From Pogonophryne albipinna (taxonomy: Eukaryota; Chordata; Actinopteri; Perciformes; Artedidraconidae): a stretch of 64,000 nucleotides of DNA. Positions 2,596 through 62,435 of this stretch are shown here, piece after piece. A program made the translations under genes and the position numbers. Positions within the stretch are counted from its first letter, which is position 1; each line of letters begins with the position of its first letter. The notes under the pieces were generated by a model that had not been told where the DNA came from, made no database searches, and saw only the letters and a program-made list of their open reading frames with translations. Location of the stretch: assembly GCA_028583405.1 (NCBI GenBank), contig JAPTMU010000122.1, positions 62,001-126,000 of the forward strand. The letters are read 5' to 3'.

Positions 2596-2800
2596 CTCAT
2601 CTCCTGCAGATTAGATTCATTTTATTGATCCCAAATTGGGAAACATGTTCTGTTACTTCAGCATGTAAACAAGGGATAGACAGAGGGGGGAAGGAGGGGC
2701 TGCAGCCCAGGCAGTGTGAGGAACATACAGGGCTTTGAACATGAAAGCATGGAGACATGTCCCAGGAGAGACACTACAGTGTGTCCAGAGCTTTTCTGAT
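2596..2800. repeat. Fragments of dispersed repeats
   Basis: A TTTATTGATCCCAAATTGGG motif (about 2618) recurs as TTTATTGATCCCAATTTGGG near 19598 and looks like the end of a dispersed element. It is followed by a stretch (GCTGCAGCCCAGGCAGTG to GGAGACATGTC) that matches the inner part of the TTAA element at 62021-62435. Both are truncated pieces, and the family of the first is not assigned. Confidence 0.55.
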
Positions 2801-2860: not shown

Positions 2861-5572
2861 GTATGAGGGGCCGTGCAGGCCGTAATTCATACTGGTCCTC
2901 TCACGCACATACATTCTCCTTATACATACATACATTTTCACTCTCACACACGTATATATTTACACTCACACATTCATACATTTTGCTCTCATATTATCAT
3001 ATTTCAATGCACACATTCATATATTGTCACTCACACATTCATGCATTTTGTTCTCATATTCATATATTTTAATGCTCATATTTATACATTTTGCTCTCAT
3101 GCACATCATTCAATGTTTACATTTAATATTATAAATAATATATGCATGTATGAACACAATGTATGTATGCAAGAGAAGAATGTGTGTATGTATGAAGACA
3201 ATATATGTATGCAAGAGAAGAATGTGTGTATGTATGAAGACAATATGTGTATGCAAGAGAAGAATGTATGTATGTGTGAGAGAAAGTATAGTGGAAACTG
3301 AAGGAGTATGGTTGAAACGGAAGGCAGGTCATTATCGCGCTGTGATTGGCTCAGAAGGTCAAGCGGGGCGGGCTCATGTTCAGAACTTTGGATTCAAATC
3401 AACATGACGGAGGGAGATGAATCCGTGTATCTACGGACCATTTGTTTTTCTTTATTAAACAAGTAAACGGAAGAGCGTCTGAGAGGCGTTTTTGCCCTTT
3501 TGCTTTTTACCTTACTAAATGGTCTAATGGTCAGTGGGGGGCGAAACTCGCGGAAGTGATTTCAAAACAAAAAGCACTCGTTTGCTTGGAACGCTGATAT
3601 TATAAACAAGGGGAAACTAGGGGAATTTAGCGATCACAACGAAAACGGCCAAGACACACATTGAGCCCAGAAAATGAATGTTATTTGAATGAATGTTATA
3701 CAGCGGTTCTGCACTGCGGTCACCTCAGCAGTCTCTCGAGTTTTTTTTTCAAATCAGCAGCTATTTTTTCCCCTGCTATATTTGATGATCGATACAAATA
3801 TTTGTTACCACAAGTTCTCAATAAAAGTGACACTGTTGGACTCGGTACTCCTTGGACTACTACCACAAGTACAATCAAGTAGCCTACTTTTACTGTGTAC
3901 TTTTTTGAGTAATCTTTTGTCAAACTCCACCCATGAGTACAAAAAATCATTTTATCTTTCATCAAAGAGGGCAGAAAACATGCATTATTGTACTCTGGAG
4001 GGGAGTTTGACAGAGTATTACTCAAATAGTACACAGTAAAAGTACTTCATTGTATTTGTGGTAGTTTAACAAGTACTGAGTCCAACGGTACCAACTTTAT
4101 TAAGAACTTATGGCTAAAAATTATTTGATCCCTCGTCAAATATAGCATAAGCTCTTGTACTACCGTCAGCGCCGCTTCTCTGCGATTACCGTAAAGACGC
4201 TATTAATCGCGCACTCCAAAATGAAGAGCTGCTCATTTGACCAAACAAATGCGAGAGACGGCTGAGTTGACCGCAGTCAATATCATTAAGAACTAATGGT
4301 AAAATTGTCTTTTTATCATTCATCAAAGATAGCAGAAAACATGCATTATGTAGGCTACTATGGAGGGGACTTTGACAGAGGATTACTCATAAAGTACACA
4401 GTAAAAGTAATTCATTTTATTTTTGGTAGCAGTCAAACTAGTACCGAGTCCAACAGTGTCACTTTTATTAAGAACTTGTGGTAACAAATATTTGTATCGA
4501 TCATCAAATATAGCAGGGAAAGAGCTGCTGATTTGAAAAAAAAACTCGAGAGACGGCTGAGTGACCGCAGTGCAGAACCGCTGTATAGTTTAAATCTCCT
4601 AACAATGTTGTCCATTTTAGACACAGGCTTATTATATTTACAGCCTTAATAACGTTCATTTTCTGGGCTCAATGTGTGTCTTGGCCGTTTTCTTTGTGAT
4701 CGCTAAATTCCCCTAGTTTCTCCTTATTTATAATATCAGCGATCCAAGCAAACGAGTGCTTTTTGTTTTGAAATCACTTCCGCGAGTTTCGCGGCGCCCC
4801 CCCCCCCTCGCTCCAATGACCAATAGACCATTTAGTAAGGTAAAAAGCAAAAGGGCAAACACGCCTCTCAGACGCTCTTCCGTTTACTTGTTTAATAAAG
4901 AAAAACAAATGGTCCGTAGATACACGGATTCATCTCCCTCCATCATGTTGATTTGAATCCAAAGTTCTGAACATGAGCCCGCCCCGCTCGACCTTCTGAG
5001 CCAATCACAGCGCGATAATGACCTGCCTTCCGTTTCAACCATACTCCTTCCGTTTCCACTATACTTTCTCTCACACATACATACATTCTTCTCTTGCATA
5101 CACATATTGTCTTCATACATACATACATTCTTCTCTTGCATACACATATTGTCTTCATACATAAATACATTCTTCTCTTGCATACATATATTGTCTTCAT
5201 ACATACACACATTCTTCTCTTGCATACACATATTGTCTTCATACATACATACATTCTTCTCTTGCATACACATATTGTCTTCATACATACACACATTCTT
5301 CTCTTGCATACACACATTGTCTTCATACATACATACATTGTCTTCATACATGCATATATTATTTATAATATTAAATGTAAACATTGAATGAATGTGCATG
5401 AGAGCAAAATGTATAAATATGAGCATTAAAATATGATAATATGAGAGCAAAATGTATGAATGTGTGAGTGTAAATATATACGTGTGTCAGAGTGAAAATG
5501 TATGTATGTATAAGGAGAATGTATGTGCGTGAGAGGACCAGTATGAATTACGGCCTGCACGGCCCCTCATAC
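2861..5572. mobile_element. 2.7-kb fold-back (palindromic) element
   Basis: A giant inverted repeat. The left arm (2861 to about 3846) begins GTATGAGGGGCCGTGCAGG and the right arm (about 4437 to 5572) ends with its complement. Many internal blocks pair, including the segment at 3405-3530 with 4825-4945 and that at 3545-3845 with 4437-4790. The arms differ in copy number of a roughly 40-bp tandem unit (ATGCAAGAGAAGAATGT...): about three copies at 3165-3280 against about six at 5085-5345. The centre (3850-4435) contains a second, shorter inverted repeat (3890-3955 against 3990-4055). A 6-bp CACACG flanks both ends, but the flanks are CA-rich, so this target duplication is uncertain. No transposase frame is visible. 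Confidence 0.8.
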
Positions 5573-8654: not shown

Positions 8655-9735
8655 ATCACGCCCAACATTAGCCACCTTTAGCTTAGCGGTGGTGACGTGA
8701 AGTCATGTGACAGTGCTGTAGTTCCTTTATAGCCCAACATTAGCTTCCTTTAGCTTAGCGGTGGTGAAGTGAAGTCATGTGACCGTGCTGTAGTTCCTTT
8801 ATAGCCCAACATTAGCTTCCTTTAGCTTAGCGGTGGTAAAGTGAAGTCATGTGACCGTGCTGTAGTTCCTTTATAGCCCAACATTAGCCACCTTTAGCTT
8901 AGCGGTGGTGAAGTGAAGTCATGTGACCGTGCTGTAGTTCCTTTATAGCCCAACATTAGCCTCCTTTAGCTTAGCGGTGGTGATGTGAAGTCATGTGACC
9001 GTGCTGTAGTTTCTTTATATTCCAACAATAGCCACCTTTAGCTTAGCGGTGGTGATGTGAAGTCATGTGACTGTGCTGTAGTTCCTTTATAGCCCAACAT
9101 TAGCCACCTTTAGCTTAGCGGTGGTGACGTGAAGTCATGTGACCGTGCTGTAGTTCCTTTATATCCCAACATTAGCCTCCTTTAGCTTAGAGGTGGTGAC
9201 GTGAAGTCATGTGACCGTGCTGTAGTTCCTTTATAGCCCAACATTAGCCTCCTTTAGCTTAGCGGTGGTGATGTGAAGTCATGTGACCGTGCTGTAGTTT
9301 CTTTATATCCCAACAATAGCCACCTTTAGCTTAGCGGTGGTGATGTGAAGTCATGTGACTGTGCTGTAGTTCCTTTATAGCCCAACATTAGCCACCTTTA
9401 GCTTAGCGGTGGTGAAGTGAAGTCATGTGACCGTGCTGTAGTTCCTTTATAGCCCAACATTAGCCTCCTTTAGCTTAGCGGTGGTGATGTGAAGTCATGT
9501 GACCGTGCTGTAGTTTCTTTATATCCCAACAATAGCCACCTTTAGCTTAGCGGTGGTGATGTGAAGTCATGTGACTGTGCTGTAGTTCCTTTATAGCCCA
9601 ACATTAGCCACCTTTAGCTTAGCGGTGGTGACGTGAAGTCATGTGACCGTGCTGTAGTTCCTTTATATCCCAACATTAGCCTCCTTTAGCTTAGAGGTGG
9701 TGACATGAAGTCATGTGACCGTGCTGTAGTTTGTT
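8655..9735. repeat. 72-bp minisatellite, about 15 copies
   Basis: The unit (TTAGCTTAGCGGTGGTGA, then GTGAAGTCATGTGACCGTG, then TTCCTTTATAGCCCAACAT, then TAGCC and CTCC/CACC) repeats every 72 bp; for example AGCGG starts at 8685 and 8757. Variant marks recur in blocks (TTTCTTTATATCCCAACAATAG near 9010, 9300 and 9515), showing higher-order duplication. Nearly every unit carries TCATGTGAC, an E-box/M-box-like site. A second array with the same unit lies at 54548-55163. Confidence 0.95.
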
Positions 9736-10063
9736 TATGTTCCTTACCTTCTGTATTTATACTTCAACTATTATACAAGTGGTGTTGAGACGTAGATATT
9801 ATCCTGCAGAACAAAACCAAAAAAGAAGTACCATAAACAAAAATCTTATTTCCTGCAATATTCCGAAATCCAATTATAATAAACTTTTTGTGGAAGCAGC
9901 CTAAAGTCATCACTGCACCACTCTATCAGAACGTATAGAAAATAGATTTATAGTATTGTGTGCCTGCTGCTGCCAGCATACGGTTTTTATATATAAAAAA
10001 AAAATCTATTTCTGTTTGTATCTGCAGCAGCTACTCTCTTTCCTCCCTACTGCTAAACTCAAT

Positions 10064-12591: not shown

Positions 12592-15500
12592 TTAAAGAGG
12601 CCCTGTTGTGCTTTTTGGGGTTTTCCATTTCCTGTAGTGTGTTCTATTGGTTTTTGGTGCATGTAAATGGTCTGCAAAGGCTACAATCCCTGTGTTTAAA
12701 GTAGAGACACTACATACTGATAGACACCTGAACATCAGCAGGAGAGGACTCTTTAAAGTAGAGACACTACATACTGATATACACCTGAACATCAGCAGGA
12801 GAGGACTCTTTAAAGTAGAGTCACTACATACTGATATACACCTGAACATCAGCAGGAGAGGACTCTTTAAACTAGAGACACTACATACTGATATACACCT
12901 GAACATCAGCAGGAGAGGACTCTTTAAAGTAGAGTCACTACATACTGATATACCCCTGAACATCAGCAGGAGAGGACTCTTTAAAGTAGAGACACTACAT
13001 ACTGATATACACCTGAACATCAGCAGGAGAGGACTCTTTAAAGTAGAGACACTAAATACTGATATACACCTGACCATCAGCAGGAGAGGACTCTTTAAAG
13101 TAGAGACACTACATACTGATATACACCTGAACATCAGCAGGAGAGCACTCTTTAAAGTAGAGACACTACATACTGATATACACCTGAACATCAGCAGGAG
13201 AGGACTCTTTAAAGTAGAGTCACAACATACTGATATACACCTGAACATCAGCAGGAGAGCACTCTTTAAAGTAGAGACACTACATACTGATATACACCTG
13301 AACATCAGCAGGAGAGGACTCTTTAAAGTAGAGACACTACATACTGATATACACCTGAACATCAGCAGGAGAGGACTCTTTAAAGTAGAGACACTACATA
13401 CTGATATACACCTGAACATCAGCAGGAGAGGACTCTTTAAAGTAGAGACACTACATACTGATATACACCTGAACATCAGCAGGAGAGGACTCTTTAAAGT
13501 AGAGACACTACATACTGATATACACCTGAACATCAGCAGGAGAGGACTCTTTAAAGTAGAGACACTACATACTGATATACGCCGGAACATCAGCAGGAGA
13601 GTACTCTTTAAAGTAGAGACAGTTCATACTGATATACACCTGAACATCAACAGGAGAGGACTCTTTAAAGTAGAGTCACTACATACTGGTATACACCTGA
13701 ACATCAGCAGGAGAGGACTCTTTAAAGTAGAGACACTAAATACTGATATACACCTGAACGTCAGCAGGAGAGGACTCTTTAAAGTAGAGACAGTTCATAC
13801 TGATATACACCTGAACATCAGCAGGAGGGGACTCTTTAAAGTAGAGACACTACACACTGATATACACCTGAACATCAGCAGGAGAGGACTCTTTAAAGTA
13901 GAGACACTACATACTGATATACACCTGAACTTCAGCAGGAGAGGACTCTTTAAAGTAGAGACACTACATACTGATATACACCTGAACATCAGCAGGAGAG
14001 GACTCTTTAAAGTAGAGACACTACACACTGATATACAACCTGGACATCAGCAGGAGAGGACTCTTTAAAGTAGAGACACTACATACTGATATACACCTGA
14101 ACATCAGCAGGAGAGGACTCTTTAAAGTAGAGACACTACATACTGATATACACCTGAACATCAGCAGGAGAGGACTCTTTAAAGTAGAGACACTACATAC
14201 TGATATACACCTGAACATCAGCAGGAGAGGACTCTTTAAAGTAGAGTCACTACATACTGATATACACCTGAAGATCAGCAGGAGAGGACTCTTTAAAGTA
14301 GAGACACTACATACTGATATACACCTGAAGATCAGCAGGAGAGGACTCTTTAAAGTAGAGACACTACATACTGATATACACCTGAACATCAGCAGGAGAG
14401 GACTCTTTAAAGCAGAGACACTACATACTGATATACACCTGAACATCAGCAGGAGAGGACTCTTTAAAGTAGAGACACTACATACTGATATACACCTGAA
14501 CATCAGCAGGAGAGGACTCTTTAAAGTAGAGACACTACATACTGATATGTACCTGAACATCAGCAGGAGAGGACTCTTTAAAGTAGAGACACTACATACT
14601 GATATACACCTGAACATCAGCAGGAGAGGACTCTTTAAAGTAGAGACACTACATACTGATATACACCTGAACATCAGCAGGAGAGGACTCTTTAAAGTAG
14701 AGACACTACATACTGATATACACCTGAACATCAGCAGGAGAGGACTCTTTAAAGTAGAGACACTACATACTGATATACACCTGAACATCAGCAGGAGAGG
14801 ACTCTTTAAAGTAGAGACACTACATACTGATATACACCTGAACATCAGCAGGAGAGGACTCTTTAAAGTAGAGACACTACATACTGATATACGCCGGAAC
14901 ATCAGCAGGAGAGTACTCTTTAAAGTAGAGACAGTTCATACTGATATACACCTGAACATCAACAGGAGAGGACTCTTTAAAGTAGAGTCACTACATACTG
15001 GTATACACCTGAACATCAGCAGGAGAGGACTCTTTAAAGTAGAGACACTAAATACTGATATACACCTGAACGTCAGCAGGAGAGGACTCTTTAAAGTAGA
15101 GACAGTTCATACTGATATACACCTGAACATCAGCAGGAGGGGACTCTTTAAAGTAGAGACACTACACACTGATATACACCTGAACATCAGCAGGAGAGGA
15201 CTCTTTAAAGTAGAGACACTACATACTGATATACACCTGAACTTCAGCAGGAGAGGACTCTTTAAAGTAGAGACACTACATACTGATATACACCTGAACA
15301 TCAGCAGGAGAGGACTCTTTAAAGTAGAGACACTACACACTGATATACACCTGGACATCAGCAGGAGAGGACTCTTTAAAGTAGAGACACTACATACTGA
15401 TATACACCTGAACATCAGCAGGAGAGGACTCTTTAAAGTAGAGACACTACATACTGATATACACCTGAACATCAGCAGGAGAGGACTCTTTAAAGTAGAG

Positions 15501-17936
15501 ACACTACATACTGATATACACCTGAACATCAGCAGGAGAGGACTCTTTAAAGTAGAGTCACTACATACTGATATACACCTGAAGATCAGCAGGAGAGGAC
15601 TCTTTAAAGTAGAGACACTACATACTGATATACACCTGAAGATCAGCAGGAGAGGACTCTTTAAAGTAGAGACACTACATACTGATATACACCTGAACAT
15701 CAGCAGGAGAGGACTCTTTAAAGTAGAGACACTACATACTGATATACACCTGAACATCAGCAGGAGAGGACTCTTTAAAGTAGAGACACTACATACTGAT
15801 ATGTACCTGAACATCAGCAGGAGAGGACTCTTTAAAGTAGAGACACTACATACTGATATACACCTGAACATCAGCAGGAGAGGACTCTTTAAAGTAGAGA
15901 CACTACATACTGATATACACCTGAACATCAGCAGGAGAGGACTCTTTAAAGTAGAGACACTACATACTGATATACACCTGAACATCAGCAGGAGAGGACT
16001 CTTTAAAGTAGAGACACTACATACTGATATACACCTGAACATCAGCAGGAGAGGACTCTTTAAAGTAGAGTCACTACATACTGATATACACCTGAAGATC
16101 AGCAGGAGAGGACTCTTTAAAGTAGAGACACTACATACTGATATACACCTGAAGATCAGCAGGAGAGGACTCTTTAAAGTAGAGACACTACATACTGATA
16201 TACACCTGAACATCAGCAGGAGAGGACTCTTTAAAGCAGAGACACTACATACTGATATACACCTGAACATCAGCAGGAGAGGACTCTTTAAAGGAGAGAC
16301 ACTACACACTGATATACACCTGAACATCAGCAGGAGAGGACTCTTTAAAGTAGAGACACTACATACTGATATACACCTGAAGATCAGCAGGAGAGGACTC
16401 TTTAAAGTAGAGACACTACATACTGATATACACCTGAAGATCAGCAGGAGAGGACTCTTTAAAGTAGAGACACTACATACTGATATACACCTGAACATCA
16501 GCAGGAGAGGACTCTTTAAAGCAGAGACACTACATACTGATATACACCTGAACATCAGCAGGAGAGGACTCTTTAAAGGAGAGACACTACACACTGATAT
16601 ACACCTGAACATCAGCAGGAGAGGACTCTTTAAAGTAGAGACACTACATACTGATATACACCTGAACATCAGCAGGAGAGGACTCTTTAAAGTAGAGACA
16701 CTACATACTGATATACACCTGAACATCAGCAGGAGAGGACTCTTTAAAGTAGATACACTACATACTGATATACACCTGGACATCAGCAGGAGAGGACTCT
16801 TTAAAGTAGAGACACTACATACTGATATACACCTGAACATCAGCAGGAGAGGACTCTTTAAAGTAGAGACACTACATACTGATATACACCTGAAAATCAG
16901 CAGGAGAGGACTCTTTAAAGTAGAGACACTACATACTGATATACACCTGAACATCAGCAGGAGAGGACTCTTTAAAGTAGAGTCACTACATACTGATATA
17001 CACCTGAAGATCAGCAGGAGAGGACTCTTTAAAGTAGAGACACTACATACTGATATACACCTGAAGATCAGCAAGAGAGGACTCTTTAAAGTAGAGACAC
17101 TACATACTGATATACACCTGAACATCAGCAGGAGAGGACTCTTTAAAGCAGAGACACTACATACTGATATACACCTGAACATCAGCAGGAGAGGACTCTT
17201 TAAAGTAGAGACACTACATACTGATATACACCTGAAAATCAGCAGGAGAGGACTCTTTAAAGTAGAGACACTACATACTGATATACACCTGAACATCAGC
17301 AGGAGAGGACTCTTTAAAGTAGAGTCACTACATACTGATATACACCTGAAGATCAGCAGGAGAGGACTCTTTAAAGTAGAGACACTACATACTGATATAC
17401 ACCTGAAGATCAGCAGGAGAGGACTCTTTAAAGTAGAGACACTACATACTGATATACACCTGAACATCAGCAGGAGAGGACTCTTTAAAGTTGAGTCACT
17501 ACATACTGATATACACCTGAACATCAGCAGGAGAGGACTCTTTAAAGTAGAGACACTACATACTGATATACACCTGAAGATCAGCAAGAGAGGACTCTTT
17601 AAAGTAGAGACACTACATACTGATATACACCTGAACATCAGCAGGAGAGGACTCTTTAAAGCAGAGACACTACATACTGATATACACCTGAACATCAGCA
17701 GGAGAGGACTCTTTAAAGTAGAGACACTACATACTGATATACACCTGAACATCAGGAGGAGAGGACTCTTTAAAGCAGAGACACTACATACTGATATACA
17801 CCTGAACATCAGCAGGAGAGGACTCTTTAAAGTAGAGACACTACATACTGATATACACCTGAACATCAACAGGAGAGGACTCTTTAAAGTAGAGACACTA
17901 AATGCTAATATGATGGGCAGAATGTGTCCTCTTTAA
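12592..17936. mobile_element. TTAA-bounded element expanded by a 57-bp array
   Basis: The left end reads TTAAAGAGGCCCTGTTGTGC (12592) and the reverse complement of the right end reads TTAAAGAGGACACATTCTGC (17936 backwards), so the 5.3-kb segment has matching inverted termini starting with TTAA. The first 103 bp match the left part of the unexpanded element at 62021-62435 (TGCATGTAAATGGTCTGCAA and TCCCTGTGTTT). The rest is the 57-bp array. The reading is that a TTAA-target MITE had its interior replaced by tandem amplification of terminal sequence. Termini are seen directly; the mechanism is inferred. Confidence 0.7.
12695..17925 (+). repeat. 57-bp tandem array 1, about 92 copies, forward orientation
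   Basis: The unit starts TTTAAAGTAGAGACACTACA, continues TACTGATATACACCTGAAC and ends ATCAGCAGGAGAGGACTC (57 bp). Since 57 = 3 x 19 and the unit lacks stops in one frame on each strand, both strands stay open for kilobases, encoding FKVETLHTDIHLNISRRGL on plus and LMFRCISVCSVSTLKSPLL on minus. These are not real genes: no exon context exists and base changes show no silent bias. A block with rare variants (GCCGGAAC at 13581, GACAGTTCATAC, ATCAACAGG, TGGTATACAC) recurs at 14893, an offset of 1312 bp (23 units plus one inserted A near 14037), which indicates higher-order duplication. Confidence 0.97.
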
Positions 17937-20661: not shown

Positions 20662-23360
20662 TCTTTAAAGAGTCCTCTCCTGCTGATGTTCAGGTGTATA
20701 TCAGTATGTAGTGTCTCTACTTTAAAGAGTCCTCTCCTGCTGATGTTCAGGTGTATATCAGTATGTAGTGTCTCTACTTTAAAGAGTCCTCTCCTGCTGA
20801 TGTTCAGGTGTATATCAGTATGTAGTGTCTCTACTTTAAAGAGTCCTCTCCTGCTGATGTTCAGGTGTATATCAGTATGTAGTGTCTCTACTTTAAAGAG
20901 TCCTCTCCTGCTGATGCTCAGGTGTATATCAGTATGTAGTGTCTCTACTTTAAAGAGTCCTCTCCTGATGTTCAGGTGTATATCAGTATGTAGTGTCTCT
21001 ACTTTAAAGAGTCCTCTCCTGGTGTTCAGGTGTATATCAGTATGTAGTGTCTCTACTTTAAAGAGTCCTCTCCTGCTGATGTTCAGGTGTATATCAGTAT
21101 GTAGTGTCTCTACTTTAAAGAGTCCTCTCCTGCTGATGTTCAGGTGTATATCAGTATGTAGTGTCTCTACTTTAAAGAGTCCTCTCCTGCTGATGTTCAG
21201 GTGTATATCAGTATGTAGTGTCTCTACTTTAAAGAGTCCTCTCCTGCTGATGTTCAGGTGTATATCAGTATGTACTGTCTCTACTTTAAAGAGTCCTCTC
21301 CTGCTGATGTTCAGGTGTATATCAGTATGTAGTGTCTCTCCTTTAAAGAGTCCTCTCCTGCTGATGTTCAGGTGTATATCAGTATGTAGTGTCTCTCCTT
21401 TAAAGAGTCCTCTCCTGCTGATGTTCAGGTGTATATCAGTATGTAGTGTCTCTACTTTAAAGAGTCCTCTCCTGCTGATGTTCAGGTGTATATCAGTATG
21501 TAGTGTCTCTACTTTAAAGAGTCCTCTCCTGATGTTCAGGTGTATATCAGTATGTAGTGACTCTACTTTAAAGAGTCCTCTCCTGCTGATGTTCACGTGT
21601 ATATCAGTATGTAGTGTCTCTACTTTAAAGAGTCCTCTCCTGCTGATGTTCAGGTGTATATCAGTATGTAGTGTCTCTACTTTAAAGAGTCCTCTCCTGC
21701 TGATGTTCAGGTGTATATCAGTATGTAGTGTCTCTCCTTTAAAGAGTCCTCTCCTGCTGATGTTCAGGTGTATATCAGTATGTAGTGTCTCTACTTTAAA
21801 GAGTCCTCTCCTGCTGATGTTCAGGTGTATATCAGTATGTAGTGTCTCTACTTTAAAGAGTCCTCTCCTGATGTTCAGGTGTATATCAGTATGTAGTGAC
21901 TCTACTTTAAAGAGTCCTCTCCTGCTGATGTTCACGTGTATATCAGTATGTAGTGTCTCTACTTTAAAGAGTCCTCTCCTGCTGATGTTCAGGTGTATAT
22001 CAGTATGTAGTGTCTCTACTTTAAAGAGTCCTCTCCTGCTGATGTTCAGGTGTATATCAGTATGTAGTGTCTCTCCTTTAAAGAGTCCTCTCCTGCTGAT
22101 GTTCAGGTGTATATCAGTATGTAGTGTCTCTACTTTAAAGAGTCCTCTCCTGCTGATGTTCAGGTGTATATCAGTATGTAGTGTCTCTACTTTAAAGAGT
22201 CCTCTCCTGCTGATGTTCAGGTGTATATCAGTATGTAGTGTCTCTCCTTTAAAGAGTCCTCTCCTGCTGATGTTCAGGTGTATATCAGTATGTAGTGTCT
22301 CTACTTTAAAGAGTCCTCTCCTGCTGATGTTCAGGTGTATATCAGTATGTAGTGTCTCTACTTTAAAGAGTCCTCTCCTGATGTTCAGGTGTATATCAGT
22401 ATGTAGTGACTCTACTTTAAAGAGTCCTCTCCTGCTGATGTTCACGTGTATATCAGTATGTAGTGTCTCTACTTTAAAGAGTCCTCTCCTGCTGATGTTC
22501 AGGTGTATATCAGTATGTAGTGTCTCTACTTTAAAGAGTCCTCTCCTGCTGATGTTCAGGTGTATATCAGTATGTAGTGTCTCTCCTTTAAAGAGTCCTC
22601 TCCTGCTGATGTTCAGGTGTATATCAGTATGTAGTGTCTCTACTTTAAAGAGTCCTCTCCTGCTGATGTTCAGGTGTATATCAGTATGTAGTGTCTCTAC
22701 TTTAAAGAGTCCTCTCCTGATGTTCAGGTGTATATCAGTATGTAGTGACTCTACTTTAAAGAGTCCTCTCCTGCTGATGTTCACGTGTATATCAGTATGT
22801 AGTGTCTCTACTTTAAAGAGTCCTCTCCTGCTGATGTTCAGGTGTATATCAGTATGTAGTGTCTCTACTTTAAAGAGTCCTCTCCTGCTGATGTTCAGGT
22901 GTATATCAGTATGTAGTGTCTCTCCTTTAAAGAGTCCTCTCCTGCTGATGTTCAGGTGTATATCAGTATGTAGTGTCTCTACTTTAAAGAGTCCTCTCCT
23001 GCTGATGTTCAGGTGTATATCAGTATGTAGTGTCTCTACTTTAAAGAGTCCTCTCCTGCTGATGTTCAGGTGTATATCAGTATGTAGTGTCTCTCCTTTA
23101 AAGAGTCCTCTCCTGCTGATGTTCAGGTGTATATCAGTATGTAGTGTCTCTACTTTAAAGAGTCCTCTCCTGCTGATGTTCAGGTGTATATCAGTATGTA
23201 GTGTCTCTACTTTAAAGAGTCCTCTCCTGATGTTCAGGTGTATATCAGTATGTAGTGTCTGTACTTTAAAGAGTCCTCTCCTGATGTTCAGGTGTATATC
23301 AGTATGTAGTGTCTCTACTTTAAAGAGTCCTCTCCTGATGTTCAGGTGTATATCAGTATA
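20662..23360 (-). repeat. 57-bp tandem array 2, about 47 copies, reverse orientation
   Basis: The same 57-bp unit as array 1 but inverted: TTTAAAGAGTCCTCTCCTGC, then TGATGTTCAGGTGTATATC, then AGTATGTAGTGTCTCTAC. Several units have lost one CTG (TCCTCTCCTGATGTTC at about 20965, 21525, 21865, 22375, 22715, 23225, 23280 and 23330), giving 54-bp units. A variant block (CTCTCCTTTAAAG, GTGACTCTAC, GTTCACGTG) recurs with CACG at 21594, 21933, 22443 and 22782. The offsets of 339, 510 and 339 bp indicate higher-order units of six and nine monomers. It lies in the same intron as array 1, in opposite orientation, about 2.7 kb away. Confidence 0.97.
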
Positions 23361-23771
23361 CCCTTGTTAAATTAGGGCTATCAAGAAATGGGATGAATAA
23401 AAACAAATATCAAGAGATTTATTTTGCAAAATTGCATGCAAGACAGTCCTGCGGTGTTTCAGGAGAGCAGCTCTTAATGTTCTCCTCTGTAATAATGAAA
23501 GCTACATGAAGCCCTCAGGTAGACCAGGTAGGGTGGGCTTCTGCAAAGTAGGGATGGGGCTTGTCATTTTTTACGACCCAAGAGCAGGACATGGTGAAAG
23601 CTGACAGTGTTGGTTTTCTAAATAGACAATAGTTTGCAGTTTCTCTATTTGTAGACGATTGTCTGTGTGTTCTTTGTTGCTGCCTGCACAGTGGGGGGTC
23701 CACAGGAGGGGGCCTCTTATCGTAAGCCCTCCTGGTGAAGCTCATAGCTGCAGGTGGAAATGATGCTTTTG
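23361..23771. other. cask: CASK intron 2, nothing recognised
   Basis: Apparently unique DNA between array 2 and a duplicated segment. No exon or repeat is recognised. Confidence 0.55.
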
Positions 23772-24503
<732 letters not shown>

Positions 24504-35643: not shown

Positions 35644-36300
35644 TTAAAGGTCCCATGTCATGTTTTTCTGGTTATCACCCGTCCCCTTGTGTGAAGAAGC
35701 TTTTTCTGCATGTGAACGGTCTGCAGAGTCAAAACCCTCAAAGTACACCCTGTAGCGAGTAAAACTCTAAAACAGAGAAGACCTGTCTGTGCTGCCCCAG
35801 AACGCCTCGTTGGACATTTCTCTTTTTCATCCTGGGTACAGTGACGTATTGGGTATAGTGACGTAACGTGCGCGGTGCCGTTACGTTTGGACCAATCCGC
35901 GGACTTCCTCACACACACACACTCGGCGGGATGTTGCGAGGCTCGCTGCTGCGAGGAGCGGGACACTGTGAGCCGGCGCACTGGTGTGGGGTCGGCGAGA
36001 CAGCGAGACACCGCGGAACTCAGCCTGGGCGCACACACAAACTCCCAGCCAGGCTGCGGGTGTGTGTGTTTGTTCGGGCTGTGTCTCGCTGTCTCGCAGA
36101 CGGCCACTGGGCTCACAGGGGGGGGGGGGGGGGGAGCTCCAACAAGCCGTTTAGGACAGAGAGAGAATACACAGACTATACAGAGATGCTGTTTGAGAAA
36201 CCAATGTGAGTTTGGAACATTGAACAATTTAAATCTATTCTAGTAGACCTCAACAATGGAACTGTGATCAGTAGAAATGGCCGTGACACGGGACCTTTAA
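35644..36300. mobile_element. TTAA-target MITE, family B, copy 1
   Basis: The left end is TTAAAGGTCCCATGTCATG; the reverse complement of the right end is TTAAAGGTCCCGTGTCACGG. It is bounded by TTAA on both sides (35644-35647 and 36297-36300), the target duplication used by piggyBac-type transposases. The flanks match the unoccupied related sequence at 40040-40215, where a single TTAA (40129-40132) stands at the insertion point. 657 bp, non-coding. A poly-G run lies at 36118-36134. Confidence 0.88.
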
Positions 36301-36412
36301 AGTGATTTTCTTTGAGTTTCTGACGAAAGGAGACATTTAAAGGCATCCCCTCTTTCACTGCTATTGCAAATGATCCAAAAGTCTCCCTGAAAGAGGCCCT
36401 TTAATGCTTCTA

Positions 36413-36604
36413 GGGTTCTCCCTTTCCTGTAGTTCTGTAGGTTTCTGTGCATGTAAATGGTCTGCAAAGGCTAACATCCCTGTGTTTCCTAAAGTTTAAA
36501 TATCACAAACAATCCATTTAAACTTTATGAAACACAGGGATGTTAGCCTTTGCAGACCATTTACATGCACAGAAACCTATAGAACTACAGGAAAGGGAGA
36601 ACCC
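36413..36604. repeat. Near-perfect hairpin: 89-bp arms, 14-bp loop
   Basis: Arm 1 (36413-36501, GGGTTCTCCCTTTCCTGTAG...) and arm 2 (36516-36604) are reverse complements with about two mismatches over 89 bp. The loop is ATCACAAACAATCC. Each arm matches the left part of the TTAA family A element (TGCATGTAAATGGTCTGCAA, ATCCCTGTGTTT), so the hairpin is made of two inverted copies of that element's end. Either DNA strand transcribed would fold into a long RNA stem. Confidence 0.93.
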
Positions 36605-40221: not shown

Positions 40222-40431
40222 TTACAGAAAACTTCCTTGACTTATATCCGCTGTGGCCAGGTTCCCTTCCTCCAGCGGACCGGCCGAGGAGGATTTCGTG
40301 CTTCCAGTTTTGTTCTGGTTGCACCTTAAGAGTTTCAAGGTTTGATGACGGAAGGTCTTGTCCAACAGGAAGTACATTAAAGGGTCCGTGGATCCTCTCA
40401 AAGCGGCCAAAAGCAGCAAACAGTTCTTCAG
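40222..40431 (-). CDS. gpr82: gpr82 coding exon 4 (TM7 and C-tail)
   Basis: 210 bp including stop, after acceptor CCTCTTCCTCCAG. It encodes LKNCLLLLAALRGSTDPLMYF, LLDKTF and a roughly 40-residue C-tail rich in Ser/Thr/Asn ending GSFL. TM7 carries DPLMY in place of the class A NPxxY motif, and the STDPxxxxLLDKTF stretch is a hallmark of GPR82. Joined in phase 0 to exon 3. The four exons give about 390 residues, against 336 recalled for human GPR82. The array in the preceding intron starts only 35 bp upstream of this exon. Confidence 0.92.
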   Translation of the reverse strand: MKNCLLLLAALRGSTDPLMYFLLDKTFRHQTLKLLRCNQNKTGSTKSSSAGPLEEGNLATADISQGSFL

Positions 40432-40466
40432 CTGGAGGAAGAGGAGAGAGAGGAGATGTATTTGTA

Positions 40467-42228
40467 TTAAAGAGGACATGTTGTGCTGATGCTCAGGTGT
40501 GTATCAGTATGTAGTGTCTCTACTTTAAAGAGTCCTCTCCTGCTGATGTTCAGGTGTATATCAGCATGTAGTGTCTCTACTTTAAAGAGTCCTCTCCTGC
40601 TGATGTTCAGGTGTATATCAGCATGTAGTGTCTCTACTTTAAAGAGTCCTCTCCTGCTGATGTTCAGGTGTATATCAGTATGTAGTGTCTCTACTTTAAA
40701 GAGTCCTCTCCTGCTGATGTTCAGGTGTATATCAGTATGTAGTGTCTCTACTTTAAAGAGTCCTCTCCTGCTGATGTTCAGGTGTATATCAGTATGTAGT
40801 GTCTCTACTTTAAAGAGTCCTCTCCTGCTGATGTTCAGGTGTATATCAGTATGTAGTGTCTCTACTTTAAAGAGTCCTCTCCTGCTGATGTTCAGGTGTA
40901 TATCAGTATGTAGTGTCTCTACTTTAAAGAGTCCTCTCCTGCTGATGTTCAGGTGTATATCAGTATGTAGTGTCTCTACTTTAAAGAGTCCTTTCCTGCT
41001 GATGTTCAGGTGTATATCGGTATGTAGTGTCTCTACTTTAAAGAGTCCTCTCCTGCTGATGTTCAGGTGTATATCAGTATGTAGTGTCTCTACTTTAAAG
41101 AGTCCTCTCCTGCTGATGTTCAGGTGTATATCAGTATGTAGTGTCTCTACTTTAAAGAGTCCTCTCCTGCTGATGTTCAGGTGTATATCAGTATGTAGTG
41201 TCTCTACTTTAAAGAGTCCTCTCCTGCTGATGTTCAGGTGTATATCAGTACGTAGTGTCTCTACTTTAAAGAGTCCTCTCCTGCTGATGTTCAGGTGTAG
41301 ATCAGTTTGTAGTGTCTCTACTTTAAAGAGTCCTCTCCTGCTGATGTTCAGGTGTATATCAGTATGTAGTGTCTCTACTTTAAAGAGTCCTCTCCTGCTG
41401 ATGTTCAGGTGTATATCAGTATGTAGTGTCTCTACTTTAAAGAGTCCTCTCCTGCTGATGTTCAGGTGTATATCAGTATGTAGTGTCTCTACTTTAAAGA
41501 GTCCTCTCCTGCTGATGTTCAGGTGTATATCAGTATGTAGTGTCTCTACTTTAAAGAGTCCTCTCCTGCTGATGTTCAGGTGTATATCAGTATGTAGTGT
41601 CTCTACTTTAAAGAGTCCTCTCCTGCTGATGTTCAGGTGTATATCAGTATGTAGTGTCTCTACTTTAAAGAGTCCTCTCCTGCTGATGTTCAGGTGTATA
41701 TCAGTACGTAGTGTCTCTACTTTAAAGAGTCCTCTCCTGCTGATGTTCAGGTGTATATCAGTATGTAGTGTCTCTACTTTAAAGAGTTCTCTCCTGCTGA
41801 TGTTCAGGTGTATATCAGTATGTAGTGTCTCTACTTTAAAGAGTCCTCTCCTGCTGATGTTCAGGTGTATATCAGTACGTAGTGTCTCTACTTTAAAGAG
41901 TCCTCTCCTGCTGATGTTCAGGTGTATATCAGTATGTAGTGTCTCTACTTTAAAGAGTCCTCTCCTGCTGATGTTCAGGTGTATATCAGTATGTAGTGTC
42001 TCTACTTTAAAGAGTCCTCTCCTGCTGATGTTCAGGTGTATATCAGTATGTAGTGTCTCTACTTTAAAGAGTCCTCTCCTGCTGATGTTCAGTTGTATAT
42101 CAGTATGTAGTGTCTCCACTTTAAAGAGTCCTCTCCTGCTGATGTTCAGGTGTATATCAGTATGTAGTGTCTCTACTTTAAAGAGTCCTCTCCTGCTGAT
42201 GTTCAGGTGTATATCAGTATGTAGTGTT
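40467..42228 (-). repeat. 57-bp tandem array 3, about 31 copies; fills gpr82 intron 3
   Basis: Same unit and orientation as array 2, highly homogeneous with few variants (CAGCATGTAG twice at the left, CAGTACGTAG scattered). The left end reads TTAAAGAGGACATGTTGTGC, the same terminus that closes array 1. The array occupies 1762 of the 1826 bp of gpr82 intron 3 (40432-42257), leaving about 35 bp at the acceptor and 29 bp at the donor. The 550- and 626-codon open frames over it are repeat artefacts. Confidence 0.97.
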
Positions 42229-42257
42229 TCCTATCTAGGAAAGAAAGATGGAGTCAC

Positions 42258-42398: not shown

Positions 42399-42698
42399 CT
42401 GAGAGGAGATGGTCTGTTAAGGGGGGGCTTTTTGACAGGCTAATTAACGATATATGTTATTCTTATGAGTTTGGGACTTTCTTCCCGTCGACCTCTATGA
42501 AAACCAATATTCAAAGTGCTAGATTGTAAGCAAGTGTCCAATTGGAAGCGATACGAAAATGGTGGAAACAGTGCTAGAAAAACACCATTTAGCGACTCGA
42601 AACACCAGTATTTTGACATAAGACAGACTTCCCCTACTAATTGTGCCTTTTTGAAGACGTTACTTTAGAGTAGGATACTGTATATGCCTCACACTCAC

Positions 42699-43109
42699 CT
42701 GTATGACCACGATGTTTCGTAGCACCCTCCCCAGCAGACTTTGGGACGTAGTGACGTTCGTGCTTTTCCGTGATCGCCCAATATGCCTCAGAACCATCAT
42801 ATAAGACATCAGAACCAGCAGGTAGAAGAGGAAGAACAGAGTAATCACGATCACGGCCAAACCAGCAGAAAGTCTTCCTCCGATCTCCACCGTTGGGCTG
42901 TAGCAAACCTCCGTACATCCAACAACAGCTTTTTTCACGCTCACCGCTTCCTTCACGGAGTAAATAACGGTGACGGGTACCACGCATCCGATAGCCACCG
43001 ACCACACGACGATGCAAACTCTGTTGGCGAAGGACGTTCTCTTGAGGCGGGCGAAGAAACCGTGAGGAAGAAAGGCGATGCACCGGTTGGGTCTGGAGGC
43101 GTGGGTGTG
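42699..43109 (-). CDS. gpr82: gpr82 coding exon 2 (TM4-TM5, intracellular loop 3)
   Basis: 411 bp (137 codons) after acceptor TTTTCCTCTTCCAG and before donor CAG/GTGAGT, phase 0 at both ends. It starts HTHASRPNRCIAF, carries TM4 (VCIVVWSVAIGCVVPVTVIY), a long extracellular loop 2 with two cysteines (GCTEVCYSP; one would bond to the TM3 cysteine), TM5 (VIVITLFFLFYLLVLMSY) and the basic loop 3 up to LLGRVLRNIVVIQ. The NRVCIVVWSV and PVTVIYSV signatures match GPR82. Intron 2 (42399-42698) has no notable content. Confidence 0.93.
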
Positions 43110-43239
43110 CTGGAAGAGGAAAAGAAAGACAAGTGTTAGATGCTTTACAATAATGAAAGACATTAAGAGTAATTAAGTCTACTTGTGTGCCAGCTGTGTG
43201 AACCTGGACATGTTGAGTCATGTTGGCATTATAGTCTGT

Positions 43240-44972: not shown

Positions 44973-45375
44973 GTCTATGTGGACAATAGTCTGAAAGTGG
45001 CTTGGCCGATTTGGACAATTTTTAAGTGGTTTTGAAGGATGATGAATCAATTTCTGACATTTGTAGGATCAAAAATGGCGGTTTTGAGTCCCCTAAAACC
45101 TTAAAATGTACAAGAAATGTGTCAAAATCCGCCCACCAGGAGTACAAATATGGCAACTTTCTTAATTTTTTCATTTTAACATTGGATATATATTGATTTG
45201 TTTAACGAATGCCTTTCTCTATAATGCAAATTGAATATTTGTATGGCAACTTGTACAGATGTAATGCCCCGCTGTGGTGGAAACAGGAAGAACTGGTTCA
45301 CACTGGTTCCGAACTGGTTCTGGACCTGGTTTGGTTGGAAAAGGGGTATAATAATAAATATTGTTTTAGTCACAC

Positions 45376-45786
45376 CTGTATGAGGGAGGCGAAGCGACTC
45401 AGCGCCACCCAGGTGAGGATCATGATGCTGATGTAGATGTTGATGTGCAGAACCGGGGTGATGCCGTGAAGAACCAGCTGACAAAGAGCGCTGCTCAGCG
45501 TCCAATCAGAGCCCCACGCGTAGTAAGCGGCCAGGAAGGGAGTGGTGAGAGATAGAATCAGGTTGGAGATGCTCAGATGAGACAGGTAGACGTGGGTGGG
45601 GGAGACGGTGGAGATACAGCGGAGAAACACCCACAAAGAGAGGATGTTCCCTGGGAGAGCGGTGAGGAAGAGGAAGGTGTAGGCAGAGGGGAGGAAGAAG
45701 AGGGTGGTGAAAGTGGGACAGAGGGAGAGAAAAGAGGAAGAGAGGGAGGAGTTATCCAGAGGGAAAGGGGACGAAATGTTCTCCAT
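45376..45786 (-). CDS. gpr82: gpr82 coding exon 1 (N-terminus to TM3)
   Basis: 137 codons from ATG (45784-45786) to donor CAG/GTGTGA. N-terminus MENISSPFPLDNSS has two N-glycosylation sites (N3, N12). TM1 is at about 29-54 (GN47 motif), TM2 about 67-88, Cys102 before TM3, and TM3 about 104-128. It ends WVALSRFASLIQ: SRF stands where class A receptors have DRY. GPR82 is an orphan receptor of the P2Y12-like group, and the match (THVYLSHLSISNL, SDWTLSSALCQ) is specific to it. The start is supported by a CTTCAG acceptor 5 bp upstream, implying a 5' non-coding exon. Antisense to CASK, inside its intron 5. Confidence 0.93.
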
Positions 45787-45794
45787 TTGATCTG
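45787..45794 (-). other. gpr82: Probable 5' UTR splice acceptor of gpr82
   Basis: On the minus strand the sequence TGTGTCTCTTCAG/ATCAAATGG places a good acceptor five bases before the start codon. This implies an unmapped non-coding exon further upstream (above 45.8 kb), possibly beyond the 37-bp array. Confidence 0.55.
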
Positions 45795-50629: not shown

Positions 50630-50767
50630 TGTGATACAAGTGTCGGAAATGTTTTTTTTCTCTTGGACTCCTGTGTTTACTTCTGGACCTTAATGACATC
50701 ACTGTGTACCACTCGCACTTCTATTGGCTATAGCGCTCCATCACATTGTACTTGATAGGCTAAGGGG
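50630..50767. repeat. TTAA family A fragment flanking array 4
   Basis: GACTCCTGTGTTTACTTC, TAATGACATCACTGTGTA, TCTATTGGCTATAGCGCTCC and TTGATAGGCTAAGGGG match 62125-62240 of the family A element. The array starts abruptly at GGCTAAGGGG/GACACTACAT, a different internal point from array 1. Confidence 0.8.
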
Positions 50768-53691
50768 GACACTACATACTGATATACACCTGAGCATCAG
50801 CAGGAGAGGACTCTTTAAAGTAGAGACACTACATACTGATATACACCTGAACATCAGCAGGAGAGGACTCTTTAAAGTAGAGACACTACATACTGATATA
50901 CACCTGAACATCAGCAGAAGAGCACTCTTTAAAGTAGAGACACTACATACTGATATACACCTGAGCATCAGCAGGAGAGGACTCTTTAAAGTAGAGACAC
51001 TACATACTGATATACACCTGAGCATCAGCAGGAGAGGACTCTTTAAAGTAGAGACACTACATACTGATATACACCTGAGCATCAGCAGGAGAGGACTCTT
51101 TAAAGTAGAGACACTACATACTGATATACACCTGAACATCAGCAGGAGAGGACTCTTTAAAGTAGAGACACTACATACTGATATACACCTGAGCATCAGC
51201 AGGAGAGGACTCTTTAAAGTAGAGACACTACATACTGATATACACCTGAACATCAGCAGGAGAGGACTCTTTAAAGTAGAGACACTACATACTGATATAC
51301 ACCTGAGCATCAGCAGGAGAGGACTCTTTAAAGTAGAGACACTACATACTGATATACACCTGAACATCAGCAGGAGAGGACTCTTTAAAGTAGAGACACT
51401 ACATACTGATATACACCTGAACATCAACAGGAGAGGACTCTTTAAAGTAGAGACACTACATACTGATATACACCTGAACATCAGCAGGAGAGGACTCTTT
51501 AAAGTAGAGACACTACATACTGATATACACCTGAACATCAGCATTAGAGGACTCTTTAAAGTAGAGACACTACATACTGATATACACCTGAGCATCAGCA
51601 GGAGAGGACTCTTTAAAGTAGAGACACTACATACTGATATACACCTGAACATCAGCAGGAGAGGACTCTTTAAAGTAGAGACACTACATACTGATATACA
51701 CCTGAACATCAGCAGGAGAGGACTCTTTAAAGTAGAGACACTACATACTGATATACACCTGAACATCAGCAGGAGAGGACTCTTTAAAGTAGAGACACTA
51801 CATACTGATATACACCTGAGCATCAGCAGGAGAGGACTCTTTAAAGTAGAGACACTACATACTGATATACACCTGAACATCAGCAGGAGAGGACTCTTTA
51901 AAGTAGAGACACTACATACTGATATACACCTGAGCATCAGCAGGAGAGGACTCTTTAAAGTAGAGACACTACATACTGATATACACCTGAGCATCAGCAG
52001 GAGAGGACTCTTTAAAGTAGAGACACTACATACTGATATACACCTGAACATCAGCATTAGAGGACTCTTTAAAGTAGAGACACTACATACTGATATACAC
52101 CTGAGCATCAGCAGGAGAGGACTCTTTAAAGTAGAGACACTACATACTGATATACACCTGAACATCAGCAGGAGAGGACTCTTTAAAGTAGAGACACTAC
52201 ATACTGATATACACCTGAACATCAGCAGGAGAGGACTCTTTAAAGTAGAGACACTACATACTGATATACACCTGAACATCAGCAGGAGAGGACTCTTTAA
52301 AGTAGAGACACTACATACTGATATACACCTGAGCATCAGCAGGAGAGGACTCTTTAAAGTAGAGACACTACATACTGATATACACCTGAACATCAGCAGG
52401 AGAGGACTCTTTAAAGTAGAGACACTACATACTGATATACACCTGAACATCAGCAGGAGAGGACTCTTTAAAGTAGAGACACTACATACTGATATACACC
52501 TGAACATCAGCAGGAGAGGACTCTTTAAAGTAGAGACACTACATACTGATATACACCTGAACATCAGCAGGAGAGGACTCTTTAAAGTAGAGACACTACA
52601 TACTGATATACACCTGAGCATCAGCAGGAGAGGACTCTTTAAAGTAGAGACACTACATACTGATATACACCTGAGCATCAGCAGGAGAGGACTCTTTAAA
52701 GTAGAGACACTACATACTGATATACACCTGAGCATCAGCAGGAGAGGACTCTTTAAAGTAGAGACACTACATACTGATATACACCTGAACATCAGCAGGA
52801 GAGGACTCTTTTAAAGTAGAGACACTACATACTGATATACACCTGAACATCAGCAGCAGAGGACTCTTTAAAGTAGAGGCACTACATACTGATATACACC
52901 TGAACATCAGCAGGAGAGGACTCTTTAAAGTAGAGACACTACATACTGATATATACCTGAACATCAGCAGGAGAGGACTCTTTAAAGTAGAGACACTACA
53001 TACTGATATACACCTGAGCATCAGCAGGAGAGGACTCTTTAAAGTAGAGGCACTACATACTGATATACACCTGAACATCAGCAGCAGAGGACTCTTTAAA
53101 GTAGAGGCACTACATACTGATATACACCTGAACATCAGCAGGAGAGGACTCTTTAAAGTAGAGGCACTACATACTGATATACACCTGAACATCAGCAGCA
53201 GAGGACTCTTTTAAAGTAGAGGCACTACATACTGATATACACCTGAACATCAGCAGGAGAGGACTCTTTAAAGTAGAGACACTACATACTGATATATACC
53301 TGAACATCAGCAGGAGAGGACTCTTTAAAGTAGAGACACTACATACTGATATACACCTGAACATCAGCAGGAGAGGACTCTTTAAAGTAGAGACACTACA
53401 TACTGATATACACCTGAGCATCAGCAGGAGAGGACTCTTTAAAGTAGAGACACTACATACTGATATACACCTGAACATCAGCAGGAGAGGACTCTTTAAA
53501 GTAGAGACACTACATACTGATATACACCTGAACATCAGCAGGAGAGGACTCTTTAAAGTAGAGACACTACATACTGATATACACCTGAACACCAGCAGGA
53601 GAGGACTCTTTAAAGTAGAGACACTACATACTGATATACACCTGAACATCAGCAGGAGAGGACTCTTTAAAGTAGAGACACATGAAAATGT
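50768..53691 (+). repeat. 57-bp tandem array 4, about 51 copies, forward orientation
   Basis: Same unit as array 1. It alternates two main variants, CTGAACATCAGC and CTGAGCATCAGC, and the right third carries GAGGCACTAC and AGCAGCAGAGG variants. Single-base T insertions (CTCTTTTAAAG at about 52810 and 53210) break the open frame there, which confirms absence of coding constraint. Confidence 0.97.
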
Positions 53692-54547
53692 ATTTAAATG
53701 TGTGAATACATTTTAGGCTTCTCTGATACCCTCTTCTTTATTAAGGCAGAGGTCAAACTAACTAATACTGCAGTGTGGAAATACTCTTATATACACATTT
53801 CTAAGTACCTGTTCCTCCTCTAGATGGTGCTGTTGTTCTAGTTCTATTTTTGGAGCATATTCTCCTCCCTTCTGTCAAACTGTAGATAATGATTGACACA
53901 CATGACACCAACTAGAATGACGTAGTAAATAAAAACAACCTGTAGTCACCCTCCTGAGCATGAAAGCATGTTCTTTACATATCAGAGAAGCTCCTGACTT
54001 TTACACAGTGTTTTTTATGTTTCTGTCGGTGACGTCAGACGCTTTCATCTCAGTAAAAGCTCATCTGGGTTTTCTGTGAGCTTGTGATCTTTGTAATTTG
54101 TCGTGAAAGTCCAGGCTTTGAAGTCGCCTGCAACTTCTTTCCTTTCACATTTGCGGGAAGGAAAAATGTCACACTCATTATCTGCAGGGTTCGGTTGCTT
54201 TTATTCCAGCAGTACTTGATCTCAGATTCCGTAAAAATCATTTTCTTGGTGATCCCAATTGTATGATAGTGTCTTGTTCCACTAATGTACACAGTGGGAA
54301 ATATGGAATTAACTTTACCTGCAACATAAGGTCCCTTTACTTCGATCCAGACTGAAATATCTCAACTAGTTTTTGATGTATTGCCATGAAATATGGAGAA
54401 AATGAAGCATTGCACCACCAGCAGGTCAAAGAGTTAAGCATTTTTTTTGCAGTTTGACACAATAAATATGGCATTTTTGTGACAAAATGACAGAATAGCT
54501 ATACACGTTTGACTAATTTATCTCATACATATCGTTTATTCACTCAA
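53692..54547. other. cask: CASK intron 5, nothing recognised
   Basis: AT-rich, only short frames. A CTGAGCATGAAAGCATG word near 53953 may be another family A remnant. Confidence 0.5.
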
Positions 54548-56377: not shown

Positions 56378-56424
56378 CTGGAGGCAGAAAACAGGGTCGA
56401 AATGAGTCAGGATAAATACTTTTA

Positions 56425-58112: not shown

Positions 58113-58113
58113 T

Positions 58114-58652: not shown

Positions 58653-58706
58653 TGCCATCTCTGCTGCTTGGACCAATACAAATGAAAGTAGAATTCTGTG
58701 ACCCAC

Positions 58707-59230: not shown

Positions 59231-59255
59231 GGTGGCTTCTGTGATGGTCGTTCCT
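59231..59255 (-). other. gpr34: Probable 5' UTR splice acceptor of gpr34
   Basis: On the minus strand CTTTGTTTTCTAG/GAACGACC ends at 59254. It would leave a 23-base leader before the ATG, implying an upstream non-coding first exon that I cannot locate. Confidence 0.55.
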
Positions 59256-62020: not shown

Positions 62021-62435
62021 TTGAAGAGGCCCTATTGTGCTCGTGTGGTTTTGCCTCTCCTGTTGTGTGTTATATAGGTTTTAGTGCATGTAAATGGTCT
62101 GCAAAAGCTAAAATCCCTGTTTTCCCTCGAGGGGGGAGTTTGTGGACTCCTTTGTTTACTTCCTGAACATAGTGACATCACTACAGAACACTCACACTCC
62201 TATTGGCTAGCGCTCCAACACATTGTACCTGATAGGCTAAGGGGCGGGACATCTCTGAGCGGTTCTCCAATCACAACAGAGCCGGCCAGCTAACCAATCA
62301 GAGCAGACTGGGCTCTGGTTTCAGACAGAGGGTGAAAATAGGTGCTGCAGCACAGGCAGTATGAGAACATTAAAGCATGGAGACATGTCAATTGTCTGTC
62401 GAACGAAATAGTAATGAGAAAAATGGCTTCTTTAA
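62021..62435. mobile_element. TTAA family A element without tandem expansion
   Basis: The left end is TTGAAGAGGCCCTATTGTGC; the right end reverse-complemented is TTAAAGAAGCCATTTTTCTC. Internal marks are TGCATGTAAATGGTCTGCAA, GACATCACTACAGAACACTC, GCTAAGGGGCGGGACATCTC and CAATCAGAGCAGACTGGGCT. 415 bp, non-coding. This is the best reference copy for the family that flanks arrays 1 and 4 and forms the hairpin at 36413-36604. The ends are imperfect, so it is an old copy. Confidence 0.7.

What the first reader, a model, noticed from the sequence alone, without database searches (positions are those of the whole stretch)
12592..17936. 57-bp satellite appears to be the amplified end of a TTAA element
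Array 1 is bracketed by inverted TTAAAGAGG(C/A)C termini. Its first 103 bp equal the left part of the unexpanded family A element at 62021-62435, and array 3 starts with the same terminus. In the reverse orientation every unit begins TTAAAGAGTCCTC, a one- to three-base variant of the element terminus TTAAAGAGGCCCT. So one unit is roughly one transposon end, repeated. This would be a route from a cut-and-paste MITE to satellite DNA, seen at four sites in one gene.
Basis: partly seen in the sequence, partly recalled or inferred. Interest (0 to 1): 0.8.

Follow-up and report, generated by a model that had tools for sequence, protein, structure and literature searches.

The report
Satellite grown from transposon right end
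Four long arrays of a 57-letter repeat in one animal gene look like the multiplied right-hand end of a small jumping element, an example of a known route by which mobile DNA becomes satellite DNA.

Summary
Four 57-bp arrays (12695-17911, 20663-23359, 40484-42227, 50768-53681) share one master unit, and array 1 is bracketed by TTAA and inverted AGAGG(C/A)C termini. Intermediates make the link: array 3's last unit (unit body plus a real terminus), array 1's last unit, and an unexpanded fragment at 2678-2779 that runs from element interior into the unit. Each unit includes the TTAA, and the terminus portion is its most changed part. The arrays grew locally: 41 of 47 variants occur in one array only, and blocks of units are duplicated. 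Three of four arrays touch family A sequence; array 2 does not. The genome-wide test could not be run (genome search did not complete). MITE-to-satellite conversion is already in print (Xstir on a TTAA MITE of Xenopus). This is a new example, with a terminus-plus-TTAA unit. Array 3 fills about 96% of a GPR34-like receptor intron.

The parts
12592..17936 (+). Array 1: family A element with TTAA at both ends, left terminus and ~105 bp of body, 57-bp array, and a diverged terminal unit carrying the right terminus
20664..23359 (-). Array 2: 57-bp array without family A body; right edge on a unit boundary at a TTAA (20665), other edge mid-unit, 7 bp from a TTAA at 23367
40467..42227 (-). Array 3: terminal unit with real right terminus (40467-40524) plus array; left part of element missing; lies in a receptor intron
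50664..53697 (+). Array 4: family A body remnant (50664-50767, 84% to 62143-62244), array, then a degenerate end reaching a TTAA at 53694
62021..62435 (+). Family A copy without array; its right end is not alike the unit above chance
2678..2779 (+). Family A fragment: interior (2678-2761), then AGGAGAGACACTACAG at 2764, the start of the unit in unexpanded context
36391..36604 (+). Family A left ~100 bp followed by its own inverted copy (73 of 74 aligned sites alike)
36242..36300 (+). Right end of a related TTAA element (called family B here), AGTAGA at 59 bp from its TTTAA end; weak likeness to the unit
40432..42257 (-). Intron of a GPR34-like receptor gene, 1826 bp, of which 1761 bp are array 3 with its terminus

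Best explanation
Family A is a non-autonomous TTAA cut-and-paste element (MITE), probably Kolobok-like. In a forebear the last ~57 bp of its right end, terminus and TTAA included, was duplicated in tandem (junction TTTAA|AGTAGAGAC). One route would be an element inserting into the TTAA at the end of another, followed by a deletion between short AG matches; another is slipped gap repair. The buried copies of the terminus then changed while the outermost copy stayed a real end. Elements with a short array of the same unit came to lie at several places. There each array grew on its own by unequal exchange or slippage, in single units and in blocks, and deletions at short shared sequences removed much of the element body. 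Shown: unit = right end, array-private variants, block duplications, element remnants at three of four arrays. Inferred: the first duplication and its mechanism, the order of events, and that transposition of a short array rather than exchange between arrays explains the shared master unit.
For: Unit against array 3 terminal unit: score 90, 0 of 277 controls and 0 of 2000 shuffles as good; array 3 end against left terminus: 34, 0 of 278 and 0 of 2000; unit against array 1 terminal unit: 53, 0 of 277 and 0 of 2000. Fragment 2678-2761 matches family A interior (E = 2e-8), and at 2764 begins the best match to the unit start found outside the arrays on either strand (14 of 16). Array 4 is joined to family A body. 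Array 1 has TTAA at both ends. 23 of 29 variants seen at least twice are confined to one array, against mean 4.8 and maximum 14 in 2000 label shuffles. Block duplications: lag 22-23 units in array 1, 6 and 15 in array 2.
Against: The unexpanded copy at 62021 has a right end no more like the unit than controls (35 of 277), and array 3's terminal unit is not above chance against family B's right end (35 of 277). Array 2 has no family A flank. Terminal units of arrays 1 and 3 are unlike each other (45 of 57 aligned sites) while the internal consensus is identical, which simple descent with the element does not predict without later homogenisation or unlike subfamilies. No genome-wide or outside copies were available.
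Confidence: 0.7

Rival explanations
1. Captured satellite: a minisatellite that existed already was taken up by, or joined to, family A elements, as proposed for miDNA4. The unit would then not be element sequence.
For: The unit's terminus part is a poor match to the real termini (11-12 of 17); array 2 has no family A flank; the right end of the 62021 copy does not resemble the unit (35 of 277 controls as good).
Against: The unexpanded fragment at 2678-2779 runs from family A interior into the unit start, and the outermost unit of array 3 is unit body plus terminus in one (0 of 277 and 0 of 278 controls).
Confidence: 0.12
2. Exchange between arrays: the elements inserted long ago, and gene conversion or recombination among the arrays has since kept one master unit, rather than recent spread of a short array.
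For: All four consensuses are identical and between-array difference (1.3-2.8%) is like within-array difference (1.1-3.1%), while terminal units and bodies differ much more.
Against: 41 of 47 variants are private to one array, and confinement far exceeds shuffled labels, so recent exchange is rare. This concerns only the spread, not the origin from the right end.
Confidence: 0.3
3. The likeness between unit and element end is chance, TTTAAAG being common in AT-rich sequence.
Against: 0 of 277 and 0 of 278 controls for the array 3 terminal unit, 0 of 277 for array 1's, and the junction at 2764.
Confidence: 0.03

Closest known systems
Xstir tandem repeats on the Xmix T2-MITE of Xenopus (PMC6004289 Background; PMC12628747)
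   Same: TTAA MITE presumably of the Kolobok superfamily, with a segment amplified into arrays; MITE, composite and array-only forms described
   Different: There the repeat is said to derive from internal sequence of the MITE; here the unit is the right end with terminus and TTAA
Tandem CMITE arrays of corals (PMC2872659, abstract and passages)
   Same: TTAA MITEs in tandem arrays
   Different: Whole MITEs are repeated, with piggyBac-type CC[C/T]T termini; here only one end is repeated and termini begin AGAGG
miDNA4 of Xenopus (as told in PMC12628747)
   Same: MITE carrying a satellite array of variable length, with flanks later lost
   Different: Tc1/mariner MITE, and the satellite is thought to have been captured
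Transposon dimers by repeated insertion into one target site (McGurk and Barbash, as told in PMC12628747)
   Same: Offers a way to place a second element at the TTAA of the first
   Different: Described there for whole elements; for this window it is only a proposed first step

Membership tests
Kolobok superfamily / T2-MITE | TTAA target site duplication | tested here: met
   Array 1 element: TTAA at 12592-12595 and 17933-17936. One complete element only
Kolobok superfamily / T2-MITE | Terminal RR (AG) sequence | tested here: met
   The five termini compared begin AGAGG; feature as given in PMC6004289
Kolobok superfamily / T2-MITE | T2 terminal motif AGGRR | tested here: not met
   Termini read AGAGG, so it is not filed as a T2-MITE
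Kolobok superfamily / T2-MITE | Mobilised by a Kolobok transposase | not testable with these tools
   No autonomous partner was looked for; the genome could not be searched
piggyBac MITE | TTAA target site with CC[C/T]T terminal motif | tested here: not met
   TTAA met, but termini begin AGAGG; motif as given in PMC2872659
MITE-derived satellite (Xstir kind) | Repeat unit homologous to part of the MITE | tested here: met
   Terminal units and unexpanded fragment
MITE-derived satellite (Xstir kind) | MITE-only, composite and array-only forms across the genome | tested here: inconclusive
   In the window: 62021 (MITE), arrays 1, 3, 4 (composite), array 2 (array only); genome not searchable
Introner (transposon-made intron) | Intron absent from relatives that lack the element | not testable with these tools
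   65 bp of the array 3 intron lie outside the element; no relative was available

The most novel reading that the evidence does not exclude
Each unit carries a TTAA and a changed copy of the element's end, so units may have served as alternative right ends: an element could leave or land with any number of units, and array length would be set by transposition as well as by unequal exchange. Array 2, which ends on an ordinary unit at a TTAA and has another TTAA 7 bp beyond its other edge, would be such a case.
Probability: 0.08. Interest if true: 0.6.

Novelty: new member of a known kind. Interest (0 to 1): 0.35.

Why it matters
One 64-kb stretch holds what look like several stages of the change from mobile element to satellite: copies without an array, an element with both ends and ~91 units, arrays with one end or part of the body, and an array with neither. 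The unit boundary sits on the element's end and target site, which points to a particular first step that genome-wide copies could test. One array takes up about 96% of a receptor-gene intron, so such growth can reshape introns.

Tried and rejected
Outside copies: three viral-contig scans and one genome-contig scan with exact window-derived patterns gave 0 matches each. A full-text paper search for six short sequence strings gave 0 papers, as did one for a 57-bp repeat minisatellite in fish.

Second case considered: the 37-bp array at 46273-49557 lies between TTAAAGGTCTCC (45839) and CTTTAA (49558), and I thought it a second TTAA element whose end had become satellite. Its two ends are not alike beyond chance (34 of 286 controls as good), so I dropped the claim.

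Family B right end (36242-36300): AGTAGA lies 59 bp from its TTTAA end, as it lies 57 bp in the unit. Score 41; 4 of 277 controls and 16 of 2000 shuffles as good. By the masks in that script B's own segment was not left out of the controls, so it is probably one of the four. Weak support only. Array 3's terminal unit against B: 35 of 277 controls, 198 of 2000 shuffles.

Hairpin formation by the unit as a driver: single-strand DNA folding z-scores -1.76, -0.80 and -1.95 for two rotations and a dimer; not convincing.

Excess of changes in the terminus part of the unit (5 of 17 against 2 of 41, Fisher p = 0.019): the counts were entered after seeing the alignment, so it is only suggestive.

Array 2 edges as a sign of insertion: TTAA within 6 bp of a given point is expected 8% of the time; array 2's left edge has it 7 bp away. 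Not decisive.

Intron made by the element: considered (search listing only). No relative without the array was at hand, so insertion into an existing intron remains the default.

Full report
The window and its gene. Two pieces on + match solved CASK structures over their full length: 24400-24498 (33 residues, best E = 2e-17; CaM kinase II chains follow at 3e-6 and weaker) and a 35-residue piece at about 62.9 kb (best E = 5e-17, all 7 sequences listed are CASK). On the minus strand, three of five receptor-like ORFs given to Pfam match 7tm_1 (45373-45849, 58628-59329, 55831-56406); the other two (42664-43173 and 40225-40503) match nothing. An 84-residue stretch that I joined across the exons near 42.3 and 40.4 kb matches GPR34 weakly (E = 6e-4, the only hit). 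That GPR34 lies inside CASK in other vertebrates, and that the repeats look like those of ray-finned fish, I recall from no call; no call names the species.

The arrays. Four 57-bp arrays are present; in the element's orientation arrays 1 and 4 are on + and arrays 2 and 3 on -. Splitting them at TTTAAA gave 218 pieces; 15 not 57 bp long were dropped (2, 9, 1 and 3 from arrays 1-4), leaving 203 (89, 39, 28, 47). Of these 103 equal one master unit, TTTAAAGTAGAGACACTACATACTGATATACACCTGAACATCAGCAGGAGAGGACTC, which is also the consensus of each array. Mean pairwise difference is 1.1-3.1% within and 1.3-2.8% between arrays.

Which end of the element. That is weak: score 23, with 7 of 278 window segments ending TTTAA and 102 of 2000 shuffles as good. 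Three intermediates make the case, each for the right end. (a) The outermost unit of array 3 (40467-40524, -) is the unit body followed by AGCACAACATGTCCTCTTTAA. It scores 90 against the unit (0 of 277 controls, 0 of 2000 shuffles), and its last 26 bp score 34 against the left terminus (0 of 278, 0 of 2000). (b) The outermost unit of array 1 scores 53 against the unit (0 of 277, 0 of 2000). (c) A fragment at 2678-2761 matches family A interior (70% over 84 columns, E = 2e-8), and two bases on, at 2764, begins AGGAGAGACACTACAG, the best match to the unit start outside the arrays on either strand (14 of 16; the next two have 13). Against: the right end of the copy at 62021 is not above chance (35 of 277 controls, 306 of 2000 shuffles).

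What the unit contains. It runs from AGTAGAGAC to the terminal TTAA, so the target site is part of the unit and the unit-to-unit junction is TTTAA|AGTAGAGAC. Against array 3's terminal unit the body differs at 2 of 41 sites; the terminus part shares 11 or 12 of 17 aligned positions with each of the five real termini compared. The outer copy keeps the terminus and the buried copies have changed.

Edges. Array 1: TTAA at both ends, left terminus and about 105 bp of body (84% to 62021), which meets the array at a TTT found in both (my reading). Array 4: body 50664-50767 (84% to 62143-62244), which meets the array at GACA if three bases of the body are taken as lost (my reading). Array 3: right terminus present, left part gone. 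Array 2: no family A sequence found; right edge on a unit boundary at a TTAA, other edge mid-unit with a TTAA 7 bp beyond. So 3 of 4 arrays touch family A sequence.

How the arrays grew. Of 47 variants, 41 occur in one array only. Of 29 seen at least twice, 23 are confined to one array, against a mean of 4.8 and a maximum of 14 in 2000 label shuffles. The unit order in array 1 shows a block of 22-23 units present twice, with lag 23 the strongest (9 of 49 informative pairs) and 22 next; array 2 has lags 15 (8 of 20) and 6 (8 of 23), and its 339-bp period is also seen by Tandem Repeats Finder. This is local growth. The common consensus needs a shared short array before dispersal, or exchange between arrays. 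Terminal units of arrays 1 and 3 are alike at only 45 of 57 aligned sites plus a gap while the internal consensus is identical; I have not resolved that. For comparison, two 27-bp arrays in the window share one consensus (6 and 5 units used), and two 72-bp arrays differ at 2 of 72 sites (7 and 7 units used).

Effect on a gene. On the minus strand a donor at 42257 and an acceptor at 40432 would bound an intron of 1826 bp that joins ...ILVE|LKNCLLL... in frame. Of it 1761 bp are array 3 with its terminus and 65 bp are not. The exon limits are my reading, supported by the frame and the weak GPR34 match.

What is known. Xmix, a TTAA T2-MITE presumably of the Kolobok superfamily in Xenopus, has an amplified internal segment, Xstir (PMC6004289: Background section and passages). 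PMC12628747 (passages and the first part of one section) describes MITE, array and composite forms, repeated insertion into one target site, and satellites from terminal inverted repeats. PMC9659126 (passages and one section) finds units resembling TIRs, LTRs and other non-coding parts prevalent, but no conclusive evidence that particular parts are preferred. Coral CMITEs form tandem arrays with TTAA (PMC2872659: abstract and passages). PMC6947457 was seen in passages. Other papers I saw only in search listings. In eight paper searches no listed title or abstract start described this array; the library lacks most subscription papers, so this is not evidence that it is unpublished.

Verdict. 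It is a new example of a known kind. The terminus-plus-TTAA unit and the array-filled intron are its particular points.

Noticed in passing
36391-36604: The left ~100 bp of family A is followed by its own inverted copy (73 of 74 aligned sites alike), a foldback-like form of the same element.
   Followed up: partly
46273-49557: A 37-bp array of ~89 units between TTAAAGGTCTCC (45839) and CTTTAA (49558); the two ends are not alike beyond chance (34 of 286 controls).
   Followed up: partly
40432-42257: A receptor-gene intron (GPR34-like, minus strand) about 96% filled by array 3, the element's end lying 35 bp from the acceptor.
   Followed up: partly
8660-9738 and 54550-55164: Two 72-bp arrays with nearly the same consensus (2 of 72 differences); no element ends recognised at their flanks by eye.
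   Followed up: partly
23770-24352 and 58110-58650: Two places share a long flank followed by a 27-bp array of identical consensus; the second is preceded by a 37-bp array of another sequence.
   Followed up: partly
2924-3324 and 5026-5500: Inverted pair of 42-bp arrays with matching inverted flanks (AGTATAGTGGAAACGGAAGG type), perhaps a large palindrome or another element.
   Followed up: no
535-1017: Minus-strand ORF with a BED zinc finger (Pfam E = 1.6e-4), possibly a hAT transposase remnant.
   Followed up: partly
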